64,000 nt of DNA from Stutzerimonas kunmingensis (GTDB lineage Bacteria > Pseudomonadota > Gammaproteobacteria > Pseudomonadales > Pseudomonadaceae): NCBI RefSeq assembly GCF_014764705.1, contig NZ_JACXXG010000003.1, positions 186,001-250,000 of the forward strand, read 5' to 3'. Made by a program: the position numbers and the translations under genes. Below are positions 35,718 through 39,436 of this stretch, in pieces. The notes beneath the pieces were generated by a model that made no database searches, was not told the origin of the DNA, and was given only the letters and a program-made list of their open reading frames with translations. Within the stretch, counting starts at the first letter, position 1; the number at the start of each line of letters is the position of its first letter.

Positions 35718-36863
35718 ATGGAATTCGAGAAACTTCTGCGCCTGATGGTGGAAAAGGGCGGCTCCGATCTGTTCATCACGGCAGGCGTGCCGCCTTCGAT
35801 GAAGGTCAACGGCAAGATCATGCCGGTCAGCAAGACGGCGATGTCGCCGGAAATGACCCGCGAGACCGTGCACGGCGTTATGAACGAGCAGCAGCGCCGC
35901 GAGTTCACCGAGAACCATGAGTGCAACTTCGCCATCAGCGCCCGCGGTATCGGCCGTTTCCGGGTCAGTGCGTTCTACCAGCGCAATCTCGCCGGCATGG
36001 TGCTGCGGCGTATCGAAACCAACATTCCGACCATCGAAGAACTCAAGCTGCCGGACATCCTCAAGAAGCTGTCGATGACCAAGCGCGGGCTGGTGCTGTT
36101 CGTCGGTGCCACCGGTACCGGCAAGTCGACCTCATTGGCTTCGATGATCGGCTACCGCAACAAGAATTCCAGCGGGCACATCATCTCCATCGAAGACCCG
36201 ATCGAATTCATCCACCAGCATCAGAACTGCATCGTTACCCAGCGCGAGGTCGGTATCGACACCAGCTCGTTCGAAGTGGCGCTGAAGAACACCTTGCGCC
36301 AGGCGCCGGACGTAATCCTCATCGGCGAGATCCGTACCCGTGAAACCATGGACTACGCCGTGGCCTTCGCCGAAACCGGTCACCTCTGCCTGGCGACCCT
36401 GCACGCCAACAACGCCAACCAGGCGCTGGACCGCATCATCAACTTCTTCCCGCCCGACCGTCACAACCAGGTGTGGATGGATCTGTCGCTCAACCTTAAG
36501 GCCATCGTCGCCCAGCAGCTGGTGCCGACGCCTGACGGCAAGGGGCGTCGTGCGGTGATCGAGGTGCTGATTAATACGCCGCTGGCGGCCGACTTGATCC
36601 GCAAGGGCGAGGTGCATGAGCTCAAGTCGCTGATGAAGCGCTCCACCGAGCTCGGCATGCAGACCTTCGACCAGGCGCTGTACAACCTCTATGTGCAGGG
36701 TGAAATCACCTACGAAGATGCGTTGCTGCACGCCGATTCGGCCAACGACCTGCGTCTGCTGATCAAGCTGGGATCGGAAACCGATGGCGAGCATCTGACC
36801 AGCGTGTCCCAGGGCCTGAGCCTTGAGGTCAGTGACGACGATCCAGGCCGCAGCTTCCGCTAG
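35718..36863 (+). CDS. pilU: PilT-dependent retraction ATPase PilU
   Basis: PilU is a paralogue that works with PilT and increases retraction force. The 381-residue protein has Walker A GATGTGKSTSLASM, IEDPIEFIHQH, Walker B ILIGEIRTRET, ATLHANNANQALDR, and a C-terminal tail longer than that of PilT (SETDGEHLTSVSQGLSLEV). Its TAG stop overlaps, on the opposite strand, the stop of the DUF4130 gene, so no terminator fits between them. Confidence 0.96.
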   Translation: MEFEKLLRLMVEKGGSDLFITAGVPPSMKVNGKIMPVSKTAMSPEMTRETVHGVMNEQQRREFTENHECNFAISARGIGRFRVSAFYQRNLAGMVLRRIETNIPTIEELKLPDILKKLSMTKRGLVLFVGATGTGKSTSLASMIGYRNKNSSGHIISIEDPIEFIHQHQNCIVTQREVGIDTSSFEVALKNTLRQAPDVILIGEIRTRETMDYAVAFAETGHLCLATLHANNANQALDRIINFFPPDRHNQVWMDLSLNLKAIVAQQLVPTPDGKGRRAVIEVLINTPLAADLIRKGEVHELKSLMKRSTELGMQTFDQALYNLYVQGEITYEDALLHADSANDLRLLIKLGSETDGEHLTSVSQGLSLEVSDDDPGRSFR

Positions 36864-37696
36864 TCGGCCTGTTTTGCATCCCGGCCGATGCGCTTTCCGC
36901 TTCTCGCGGCGACGCGCTCGGCCTGGCCGTCACGCTGCGCACCGGCTCGTGCGCGGCTCATCAACTGCGGGATCAACATGCCTTCGGGCAGATTCTTCCA
37001 GAAGCGCACAGGCAGGTTGCTCTCCAGTACGCCGCGGTTCAGCCGGGCCGGGTTGAACGTGCTTTCGTAATACGCCTTCCATAGCTCGCCGCCGGGGTCC
37101 GCTGCGTTCTGCGCCAGCTGCCGCCACTGTGGCGGGCAGGGGCGGATGTAGTACATGTCTTGGCCATCCCAGCAAACCCCTTCTTCCGGCGTCGCGATCA
37201 GCCAGCTGTTGCCGCCCATCCGTTCGGCGAAGTGTCCCGCCGCCCAGGGCAGTACGTCGTGCGCAGGTTCGAACCAGGCGACGTGCTGTGGTCCATCACT
37301 GGTCTGCAGTGGGCTGAAGCGAAGAAAGGCATGCAGATGGTGGGCCTCACGTCGGACTGCCTTGATTCGACCATGCAGTTCGCTGCCATCAATGTCGCCG
37401 ACCATTCGCGCACTCGAATCGCCCTGGGTGACCCGCCAGAGCACACGATACAGCAGGCTCCAGCGCTGCTCGGTGCGATAGCGCGCGGCCATTTCGAGTT
37501 CGTCCAGCAGTTGTCGGGGGACGCGAACGCGCGGTCCGCCTTCCGTTGAAGGTGCCGGCGAGGGATCGTCGAATAGCCCTGTCGATTCATCGTCGCTGGC
37601 CCAGTTCAGCTCATGTGGCGCGACGCAGCTCTGCAGCAGCGCGCGAGCCCGAACTCGCCACTCCTGGAAGCTTCCATCGAAACGCACCGTGACCAT
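36860..37696 (-). CDS. DUF4130 family probable DNA metabolism protein, partner of the radical SAM protein
   Basis: A 278-residue protein of the family (TIGR03915 as I recall it) that always accompanies a radical SAM protein and in other genomes is fused to a uracil-DNA-glycosylase domain; that fused domain is absent here. Conserved segments include RRVLWRVTQGDSS-like WRVTQG, VRREAHHLHAFLRF, WFEPAHDVLPWAAGHFAERM and WLIATPEEGVCWDG, with several aromatic and His residues that could form an active site. Its ATG overlaps the radical SAM stop by one base (TAATG), so the two are co-translated. Biochemistry is unknown; a DNA repair role is inferred from the family and the SOS box upstream. Confidence 0.85.
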   Translation of the reverse strand: MVTVRFDGSFQEWRVRARALLQSCVAPHELNWASDDESTGLFDDPSPAPSTEGGPRVRVPRQLLDELEMAARYRTEQRWSLLYRVLWRVTQGDSSARMVGDIDGSELHGRIKAVRREAHHLHAFLRFSPLQTSDGPQHVAWFEPAHDVLPWAAGHFAERMGGNSWLIATPEEGVCWDGQDMYYIRPCPPQWRQLAQNAADPGGELWKAYYESTFNPARLNRGVLESNLPVRFWKNLPEGMLIPQLMSRARAGAQRDGQAERVAARSGKRIGRDAKQAD

Positions 37697-38907
37697 TACC
37701 AGAGCGCCAGTTGTGCGGGCGTGTCGCGCAGATGCTGGCGCAGCATGGCCGACTCCTGCCCTGCCAGGCTTGGCCGGTAATCCTGAGTGATGACGAAGGG
37801 TTTGGCTTTCTCGAGCGAGCAGCGCAGACGGGTCAGATCCTCGAAGCGGATGCGCTTCTGCCGGCGCAGATCCACCAGGCGTTTCGCGCTGAGCATGCCG
37901 ATTCCGGGAATGCGGGCGATCATCGTCGGTTCGGCGCGGTTGAGGTCCACCGGAAACTGGTCGCGGTGCGCCAGCGCCCAGGCCAGCTTGGGATCGATAT
38001 CCAGCGCGAGGTTGCCTGGCCCGCTGAGCAGCTCCCCGGCCTTGAAGCCGTAGCCTCGCATGAGGAAGTCGGCCTGATACAGGCGATGCTCGCGCATCAG
38101 CGGTGGTGCCGCGAAAGGCACGGTATTGGGGCTGTGCGGAATAGGGCTGAAGGCCGAATAGTAGACCCGGCGCAGTCGATAGCTGCCGTACAGCGACTGT
38201 GCGGTATGCAGGATGGTGCTGTCATCGGTGTTGTCGGCGCCAACGATCATCTGCGTGCTCTGCCCGGCAGGCGCGAAGCGCGGTGCCCGCCGCTCCGCGC
38301 TGGCCTCGGTTTCGCCCTGGTGAATGGTATGCATGGCCTGCTTGATGGTTACCACCTGCTTTTCCGGCGCCAGGCGGATCAGGCTGGTTTCGGTCGGCAG
38401 TTCGATGTTCACGCTGAGACGGTCGGCGTAGCGGCCGGCTTCGGCGATCAGCAGTGGGTCGGCATCTGGAATGGTCTTGAGGTGGATGTAGCCGCGAAAC
38501 TCGTGCTCCTCACGCAGCAGCCTGGCGACCCGCACCAGCTGTTCCATGGTGTAGTCCGCCGAGCGGATGATGCCGGAGCTGAGGAACAGGCCGCTGATGC
38601 AGTTGCGCCGGTAGAAGTCGAGCGTCAGGCTGACCACTTCTTCCGGCGTGAAGCGCGCCCGCGGCACATCGCTGGAGCGGCGATTGACGCAGTACTGGCA
38701 GTCGTACAGGCAGAAGTTGGTCAGCAGGATCTTCAGCAGCGCCACGCAGCGCCCATCCGGCGTGAAGCTGTGGCAGATGCCCATGCCATTGGTGGCGCCG
38801 AGTCCGCTCTTGCCCTTCGAACTGCGCTTCGGCGCGCCGCTGCTGGCGCAGGAAACATCGTACTTGGCCGCATCGGCGAGCACGCTGAGTTTGTCGATCA
38901 ATTGCAT
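37696..38907 (-). CDS. Putative DNA modification/repair radical SAM protein
   Basis: A 403-residue radical SAM enzyme. The cluster motif is CxxxCxxC at Cys66, Cys70 and Cys73 (FCLYDCQYC), with further conserved cysteines at 20, 45 and 54. IKTIPDADPLL-like HLKTIPDADPLL and LSVNIELPTE follow. The C-terminus holds a helix-hairpin-helix (IARIPGIGMLSAKRLVDLRR), a non-specific DNA-binding element. The family (TIGR03916 as I recall) is named for its link to uracil-DNA-glycosylase-like partners. A LexA box lies 17-32 bases upstream of the ATG. The reaction is unknown; comparison with spore photoproduct lyase is only by analogy. Confidence 0.88.
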   Translation of the reverse strand: MQLIDKLSVLADAAKYDVSCASSGAPKRSSKGKSGLGATNGMGICHSFTPDGRCVALLKILLTNFCLYDCQYCVNRRSSDVPRARFTPEEVVSLTLDFYRRNCISGLFLSSGIIRSADYTMEQLVRVARLLREEHEFRGYIHLKTIPDADPLLIAEAGRYADRLSVNIELPTETSLIRLAPEKQVVTIKQAMHTIHQGETEASAERRAPRFAPAGQSTQMIVGADNTDDSTILHTAQSLYGSYRLRRVYYSAFSPIPHSPNTVPFAAPPLMREHRLYQADFLMRGYGFKAGELLSGPGNLALDIDPKLAWALAHRDQFPVDLNRAEPTMIARIPGIGMLSAKRLVDLRRQKRIRFEDLTRLRCSLEKAKPFVITQDYRPSLAGQESAMLRQHLRDTPAQLALW

Positions 38908-38916
38908 GGTGGTGGC

Positions 38917-38946
38917 CGTGATACTGTTCGCATATACAGTATCACG
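38917..38946. promoter_or_regulatory. LexA (SOS) box inside a 10-bp inverted repeat
   Basis: On the minus strand TACTGTATATGCGAACAGTA matches 16 of 20 positions of the E. coli LexA consensus as I remember it, with the core CTG-N10-CAG intact at 38924-38939. The arms extend to a perfect 10-bp inverted repeat (CGTGATACTG/CAGTATCACG). It sits 17-32 bases before the radical SAM ATG, where bound LexA would block transcription, and about 100 bases before the divergent TM2 gene. Confidence 0.8.
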
Positions 38947-39040
38947 GTTGCGCATGGCGGCAAGGTCCGTCTGGCGGGGCGGTTCAGGCGCATTATCGGA
39001 TAAGCTGGACGTCACTCATCAATCGCACATCGAGGTTCGG

Positions 39041-39436
39041 ATGCAGCAGAACACCCATAGCACGCTGATCGGCTATCTCCTGTGGATATTCGGTTTTCTC
39101 GGCTCCCACCGCTTCTACTACGGCAAGCCCATCACCGGCACCATCTGGTTCTTTACCCTCGGCCTGTTCTTTGTCGGCTGGATCATCGACCTGTTTCTGA
39201 TCCCATCGATGGATCGTGAAGCGGACATGCGCTTCCAGCCGGGGCCCATTGACTACACGGTCGGCTGGATACTGCTGACCTTTCTCGGCGTATTCGGTGT
39301 ACACCGCATGTATCAGGGTAAGTGGATCACAGGGATCCTTTACCTGTTCACCGGTGGCTTGTTCTTTATCGGTGTGCTTTACGACTTCTGGACGCTGAAC
39401 TCGCAGATATCCGAGCGCAATCTGGCGCGGAGCTGA
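39041..39436 (+). CDS. Double TM2-domain membrane protein
   Basis: A 131-residue protein made of two TM2 repeats. Each has two membrane segments joined by the conserved motif: GSHRFYYGKPITG in the first, GVHRMYQGKWITG in the second. Most bacterial TM2 proteins have one copy and unknown function. A GAGG site precedes the ATG. It diverges from the radical SAM gene and shares the interval that holds the SOS box, so it could also be damage-responsive; that is inference. Confidence 0.85.
   Translation: MQQNTHSTLIGYLLWIFGFLGSHRFYYGKPITGTIWFFTLGLFFVGWIIDLFLIPSMDREADMRFQPGPIDYTVGWILLTFLGVFGVHRMYQGKWITGILYLFTGGLFFIGVLYDFWTLNSQISERNLARS

What the first reader, a model, noticed from the sequence alone, without database searches (positions are those of the whole stretch)
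36860..38946. SOS-controlled radical SAM / DUF4130 pair: an uncharacterised DNA repair module
A radical SAM protein with a CxxxCxxC cluster motif and a C-terminal helix-hairpin-helix is co-translated (TAATG) with a DUF4130 protein. Directly upstream is a LexA box matching 16 of 20 consensus positions, set in a perfect 10-bp inverted repeat. The family is known only by association with uracil-DNA-glycosylase-like domains; no reaction has been assigned as far as I recall. SOS control would place it firmly in DNA damage repair or modification.
Basis: partly seen in the sequence, partly recalled or inferred. Interest (0 to 1): 0.75.

Follow-up and report, generated by a model that had tools for sequence, protein, structure and literature searches.

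The report
SOS-controlled radical SAM DNA-damage pair
Two co-translated genes behind a strongly conserved DNA-damage (SOS) switch encode a radical enzyme and a partner whose reaction is unknown, and the enzyme's last five residues look like the hook by which repair proteins hold on to the replication sliding clamp.

Summary
A TIGR03916 radical SAM gene and a TIGR03915/DUF4130 gene overlap in TAATG. A LexA operator (CTGTATATGCGAACAG, inside an 11-bp inverted repeat) ends 16 nt before the radical SAM ATG. It is conserved: 213 of 268 loci have an exact box within 150 nt (shuffles: 1.7). Its type changes with lineage (CTGT-N8-ACAG; GTTC-N7-GTTC in 35 of 35 loci outside the class). It is missing in all 7 tested genomes without a LexA over cut-off.

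SOS control of this system is not new: COG1573-COG4277 is described as LexA-controlled in Bacteroidetes (PMC8565304, passages).

Not found in the papers searched: the enzyme ends in a clamp-type peptide (window QLALW; strict form in 234 of 268, shuffled 4.0); three further invariant cysteines; a UdgX domain fused to the partner in 120 of 268 loci but absent here; linkage to imuA-imuB-dnaE2 in 10 of 80 named loci; a faint RecJ/Cdc45-like shape of DUF4130.

Best reading: a LexA-repressed, clamp-tethered radical SAM enzyme acting on damaged DNA near stalled forks or gaps, alongside the DnaE2 mutasome. SOS control is well supported, clamp docking likely, the reaction unassigned.

The parts
38916..38947 (-). 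LexA operator: CTGTATATGCGAACAG at 38924-38939 inside a perfect 11-bp inverted repeat with a 10-nt middle
   Evidence: conservation
37696..38907 (-). radical SAM protein, 403 aa, TIGR03916
   Evidence: 546 bits; start chosen from relatives
38746..38850 (-). stretch with three further invariant cysteines C20, C45, C54, possibly a second Fe-S cluster (inferred)
   Evidence: C20 in 267 of 268 rows, C45 and C54 in 268 of 268
38689..38712 (-). CxxxCxxC radical SAM cluster motif (C66, C70, C73)
   Evidence: 268 of 268 rows
37831..37953 (-). helix-hairpin-helix (HHH_3-like) segment
   Evidence: 23.4 bits, under the curated cut-off of 27
37699..37713 (-). C-terminal QLALW, sliding-clamp-type peptide
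37694..37698 (-). TAATG stop/start overlap of the two genes
36860..37696 (-). TIGR03915 / DUF4130 protein, 278 aa, without UdgX domain
36863..36961 (-). C-terminal stub that resembles the linker which in relatives leads to the UdgX domain
   Evidence: my reading of the sequences printed
39041..39436 (+). divergent TM2-domain gene that shares the intergenic region with the operator; its regulation is untested
   Evidence: PF05154, 103 bits

Best explanation
A DNA-damage-induced pair of genes. LexA sits on the operator just before the start codon and shuts the promoter; when LexA is cleaved both proteins are made together (inferred from strong comparative evidence). The radical SAM protein docks on the replication sliding clamp by its C-terminal QLALW and holds DNA with its helix-hairpin-helix segment (inferred). 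Its [4Fe-4S] cluster cleaves SAM to a 5'-deoxyadenosyl radical (inferred from the motif and the HydE/LipA/BioB-like barrel); three further invariant cysteines may hold a second cluster (inferred). The radical acts on a damaged nucleotide near a stalled fork or gap, reversing it or turning it into something that later steps can handle (inferred; no reaction is shown). DUF4130 is the constant partner, perhaps a strand-holding protein of distant RecJ/Cdc45-like shape (weak). In about half of the sampled loci a UdgX domain is fused to it that could capture a uracil-like or abasic product (inferred); the window's version lacks it. The likeliest pathway is that of ImuA-ImuB-DnaE2. My estimates: SOS control 0.95, clamp docking 0.75, DNA as substrate 0.65, work alongside DnaE2 0.4.
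Against: No experiment. 55 of 268 loci lack an exact box and 20 of 268 lack even the loose form; L069 and L102 come from genomes with a LexA over cut-off and still lack the canonical box. 34 of 268 tails fail the strict tail pattern. The imu linkage is seen in 16 of 268 loci and not in the window's own genome, where imuA lies on another contig. The helix-hairpin-helix match is under its cut-off. Nearest folds include enzymes of small molecules and RNA. DUF4130-to-RecJ has no sequence support and no Foldseek match at E <= 0.001.
Confidence: 0.5

Rival explanations
1. It modifies normal bases (a DNA-marking system) rather than repairing lesions; damage merely induces the marking.
For: NCBI's own name is 'DNA modification/repair'; PMC3765255 (passage) suggests that DUF4130 and its partners might modify thymines.
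Against: SOS control across lineages and the UdgX and DnaE2 company point to lesions or to gap filling.
Confidence: 0.2
2. It is a mutagenesis factor: a clamp-bound accessory of DnaE2 translesion synthesis whose radical chemistry prepares or edits the site, so that loss lowers mutation rather than survival.
For: imuA-imuB-module-dnaE2 order in L268, L280, L283; clamp-type tail; PMC3765255 calls DUF4130 a 'predicted mutagenesis-related enzyme'.
Against: Linkage in a minority of loci only (16 of 268).
Confidence: 0.2
3. It is an ordinary spore-photoproduct-lyase-type (SplB-like) direct reversal enzyme.
For: Radical SAM under SOS control; SplB-type proteins are described as SOS-regulated (PMC8565304).
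Against: No SPL or PA0069-type model among its 10 NCBIfam matches at E <= 10, while another protein of this genome scores 501 bits to the PA0069 family behind its own LexA-type box. Top folds shown are HydE, LipA and BioB.
Confidence: 0.05
4. It works on nucleotides, RNA or another non-DNA substrate during SOS.
For: Relatives by fold act on small molecules, proteins or RNA (HydE, BioB, LipA, RlmN).
Against: Helix-hairpin-helix segment, clamp-type tail, UdgX and DnaE2 company.
Confidence: 0.05

Closest known systems
LexA-regulated COG1573-COG4277 operon (Bacteroidetes; cited there for Verrucomicrobia and Alphaproteobacteria), PMC8565304
   Same: Same radical SAM family (that COG4277 equals TIGR03916 is recalled), LexA control, two-gene unit.
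   Different: There with a uracil-DNA glycosylase; in the window the partner has no such domain and the box is of the gamma type. The passages that I saw mention no clamp peptide ('clamp' occurs 0 times in the text).
UdgX (TIGR03914; structures 6ajo and others)
   Same: The domain fused to DUF4130 in relatives scores 264 bits and matches UdgX structures best.
   Different: The window's protein ends before it, and the genome has no TIGR03914 match over cut-off.
ImuA-ImuB-DnaE2 mutasome
   Same: SOS control; neighbour of the module in 10 of 80 named loci; ImuB docks on the clamp by QLPLWG (PMC10421592, passages).
   Different: Not a polymerase part; here on another contig.
Spore photoproduct lyase and PA0069-type radical SAM proteins
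   Same: Radical SAM and SOS association.
   Different: Other model family, other nearest folds.
RecJ / Cdc45 (DHH superfamily)
   Different: No sequence support, no DHH motif in the window's protein, scores in the range that unmatched models reach by chance (note).

Membership tests
TIGR03916 radical SAM | score over the curated cut-off | tested here: met
   546.4 against 343.5 bits
TIGR03916 radical SAM | active [4Fe-4S]/SAM chemistry | not testable with these tools
   only the CxxxCxxC motif is seen
TIGR03915 / DUF4130 | score over the curated cut-off | tested here: met
   196.9 against 112.25 bits; PF13566 122.6 against 27
LexA regulon | lineage-type operator, conserved, close to the start | tested here: met
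LexA regulon | LexA binding and induction by damage | not testable with these tools
   needs experiment
Sliding-clamp-binding proteins | QL(S/D)LF-type peptide at the C-terminus (PMC9690074, passage) | tested here: met
   QLALW in the window; strict pattern in 234 of 268
Sliding-clamp-binding proteins | binding to DnaN | not testable with these tools
   no complex prediction or experiment was run
UdgX | TIGR03914 domain | tested here: not met
   absent from the window's protein; no match over cut-off in the genome (one of 29 bits)
Spore photoproduct lyase / PA0069-type | match to the family models | tested here: not met
   not among the matches at E <= 10
DHH phosphoesterases (RecJ/Cdc45) | fold | tested here: inconclusive
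DHH phosphoesterases (RecJ/Cdc45) | DHH motif | tested here: not met
   absent in the window; the letters DHH occur in 18 of 263 relatives and are not among the conserved columns

The most novel reading that the evidence does not exclude
A radical SAM enzyme that works while riding the replication clamp: an SOS-induced enzyme, perhaps with two Fe-S clusters, that does radical chemistry on DNA at stalled forks or at gaps filled by DnaE2, with DUF4130 as a RecJ/Cdc45-like strand holder without nuclease activity and UdgX as an optional catcher of the product.
Probability: 0.3. Interest if true: 0.85.

Novelty: new variant of a known kind. Interest (0 to 1): 0.6.

Why it matters
A widespread damage-induced gene pair without an assigned reaction becomes directly testable. 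The tail predicts where the enzyme works, the extra cysteines predict its cofactor content, the imu linkage predicts its pathway, and the UdgX-free form here isolates the core pair. If confirmed, radical chemistry on DNA at the replication clamp would be a new branch of DNA damage tolerance.

Tried and rejected
Chance origin of the box: rejected on conservation, spacing controls and LexA-less genomes, although loose forms of the motif are common by chance. Photolyase identity: no model support; spore photoproduct lyase was not among the 50 fold rows shown, which does not exclude it. RecJ homology of DUF4130 by sequence: hhalign against 18 RecJ proteins gave probability 0.2%. PDB sequence search with DUF4130: nothing useful. 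Clustering of neighbours found no gene common to all loci, only the imu cassette in a minority. No survey of Verrucomicrobia, Firmicutes, Bacteroidetes or Thermotoga was made (one search failed; 3 of 14 control genomes, among them Bacteroides and Thermotoga, have a TIGR03916 match).

Papers. Searches: TIGR03916/TIGR03915, 0 papers; DUF4130, 1 paper; COG4277, 1 paper; UdgX with radical SAM, 0 papers; 3 of: sliding clamp, radical SAM, clamp-binding motif, DNA repair; 35 papers, listing only. The library is open-licence only, so absence here is weak. Passages only were seen of PMC8565304, PMC3765255, PMC9380542, PMC9578287, PMC12700426, PMC10421592 and PMC9690074; none was read whole. PMC12700426 (Caulobacter SOS) has no mention of 'glycosylase' or 'radical SAM' in its main text, so it gave no support. 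Erill 2016, Erill 2006 and the 2015 UdgX paper are not held; what I say of the first is second-hand from PMC8565304. The hexapeptide form of the clamp motif, the E. coli LexA consensus and the equation COG4277 = TIGR03916 are recalled.

Rows and limits. L066 (a second piece of the gene in L049) was dropped; L001-L014 were not in the set. The 268 include the window's own locus (L032) and a few strains twice; 259 distinct proteins. The 80 named loci are the best 80 of 587 and lean to close relatives. UdgX state is by length; 9 of 268 unclear. The shuffle moves two-base blocks and is rough.

Full report
What is there. On the minus strand a 403-aa radical SAM protein (TIGR03916, 546 bits) is followed by a 278-aa TIGR03915/DUF4130 protein whose ATG overlaps the stop in TAATG. 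The genome is Stutzerimonas-like: the nearest named relatives of the partner are Pseudomonas/Stutzerimonas stutzeri. Neighbours are pilT- and pilU-like genes on one side and pyrimidine genes on the other (my reading of the ORFs), with a divergent TM2-domain gene next to the operator.

The operator. CTGTATATGCGAACAG lies at 38924-38939 in a perfect 11-bp inverted repeat, 16 nt before the ATG. It is the only exact hit to CTGTATATN4ACAG in the window. In the whole genome the pattern CTGTNNATNNNNACAG has exact hits at 10 places. Of the 9 others, 5 adjoin damage genes: a PA0069-family radical SAM gene, umuD, a yebG-like gene (under that model's cut-off), imuA, and a shared umuD/SRAP region; 4 (on C26, C27, C44, C80) had no damage gene that I could name. 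The lexA, dinG and (by my reading) topB places have one mismatch.

Conservation. Within 150 nt of the start 213 of 268 have an exact box; shuffled upstreams give 1.7, and 18 wrong spacings together give 11; one representative per cluster under 70% identity gives 27 of 38 against 0.2. Exact counts are 42/47 genus, 60/82 family, 8/13 order, 8/11 class, all CTGT-N8-ACAG; 35/35 beyond the class, all GTTC-N7-GTTC or its reverse, the alphaproteobacterial type; and 60/80 named (20 gamma type, 40 alpha type). So the operator follows the lineage's LexA. A loose test leaves 20 of 268 without a box and admits some chance hits. Seven of these 20 (L045-L049, L110, L111) are the loci of the 7 genomes without a LexA over cut-off among the 13 tested, while three genomes with a similar divergent radical SAM and with LexA have an exact box (L112-L114). 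Against this, L069 and L102 come from genomes with LexA but lack the canonical box; L102 has another palindrome instead.

Prior knowledge. PMC8565304 (passages) lists COG1573-COG4277 as LexA-controlled in Bacteroidetes, cites Verrucomicrobia and Alphaproteobacteria, and proposes that the glycosylase deals with misincorporation by error-prone polymerases. PMC3765255 (passage) calls DUF4130 a predicted mutagenesis-related enzyme. The regulation is thus known in kind. The passages that I saw do not speak of Pseudomonas or Burkholderiales for this operon; here exact boxes are seen in both (for example L218-L221, L225-L228, L232-L239, L241, L243, L244).

The clamp-type tail. In 15 diverse proteins Q399 and L402 are invariant after a poorly conserved stretch. 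In the last 14 residues 234 of 268 match Q[LMIV]x[LMIV][FWLIMY]; shuffled tails give 4.0 on average and 10 at most; with any residue after Q it is 248 against 24.7, at most 36. By group the strict form is in 47/47 genus, 81/82 family, 12/13 order, 6/11 class, 29/35 phylum and 59/80 named. Elsewhere in the same proteins it occurs 4 times in 105,516 residues, and in 1 of 250 DUF4130 tails. Of the 20 that fail even the looser form, 16 end in six-residue variants such as QLGFGF or QMALAL (that form of the clamp motif is recalled), three carry QLELN, QADLF or QLMLF a little earlier, and L070 ends in QQAFDF. The letters vary while the type stays, as expected of a docking peptide. A review gives the bacterial clamp consensus as QL(S/D)LF at the C-terminus (PMC9690074, passage) and ImuB uses QLPLWG (PMC10421592, passages). 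Residues 400-403 have low confidence in the model, as for a free tail. DnaE2 of this genome has an internal QLPLF; its ImuB shows no such pattern in my scan.

Gene company. In 10 of 80 named loci (66 of them with full 4-kb flanks) imuA, imuB or dnaE2 adjoin the module. In L268, L280 and L283 the order is imuA-imuB-radical SAM-DUF4130/UdgX-dnaE2; L273 shows imuA-imuB and L274 dnaE2 only; in L255, L257, L258, L259 and L264 the cassette is divergent. Models were run on 9 proteins of six of these loci: DnaE2 scored highly (two over cut-off, two cut by the contig or flank), ImuA and the ImuB-type polymerase only weakly; the rest rests on tblastn. Six of 188 unnamed loci with shorter flanks also show imuA or imuB.

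Distribution. Over the family cut-off: 47 of 56 genus, 128 of 248 family, 19 of 244 order, 7 of 274 class and 53 of 299 phylum genomes (the sets overlap). 158 of 72,556 plasmid and 10 of 50,697 phage records have a match.

Verdict. The system is known in kind; the clamp-type tail, the link to the DnaE2 cassette and the UdgX-free form make its function testable.

Noticed in passing
L102, L251, L295, about 40 nt upstream of the radical SAM start: Xanthomonad-type loci (L251 Xanthomonas, L295 Stenotrophomonas, L102 unnamed) have a different palindrome, GTCTCA-N5-TGAGAC, where others have the LexA box; perhaps another damage repressor's site.
   Followed up: partly
L045-L048, about 100-125 nt upstream of the radical SAM start: Four loci of one family without a LexA over cut-off share a CGACA-N5-TGTCG-like palindrome (seen); possibly the site of a LexA-independent damage regulator.
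   Followed up: no
L253, 35 nt upstream of the start: A Verrucomicrobiaceae locus has a long palindrome GAACAGTGC-N7-GCACTGTTC before the radical SAM gene.
   Followed up: no
L001 (G000 contig C11, 25900-28900): A second radical SAM protein (PA0069 family, 501 bits) stands behind its own exact LexA-type box in the same genome.
   Followed up: partly
L009 (G000 contig C72, 9600-12600): An SRAP gene and a umuD-like gene diverge from one shared exact LexA-type box.
   Followed up: no
window 39041-39436: The divergent TM2-domain gene shares the intergenic region with the operator and might be SOS-controlled too.
   Followed up: no
H21, H22 (phage records CAKLQH020000003.1 and CAKLQF020000004.1): Two 240-kb records named Acinetobacter phage carry a radical SAM gene of this family at 51% identity.
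   Followed up: no
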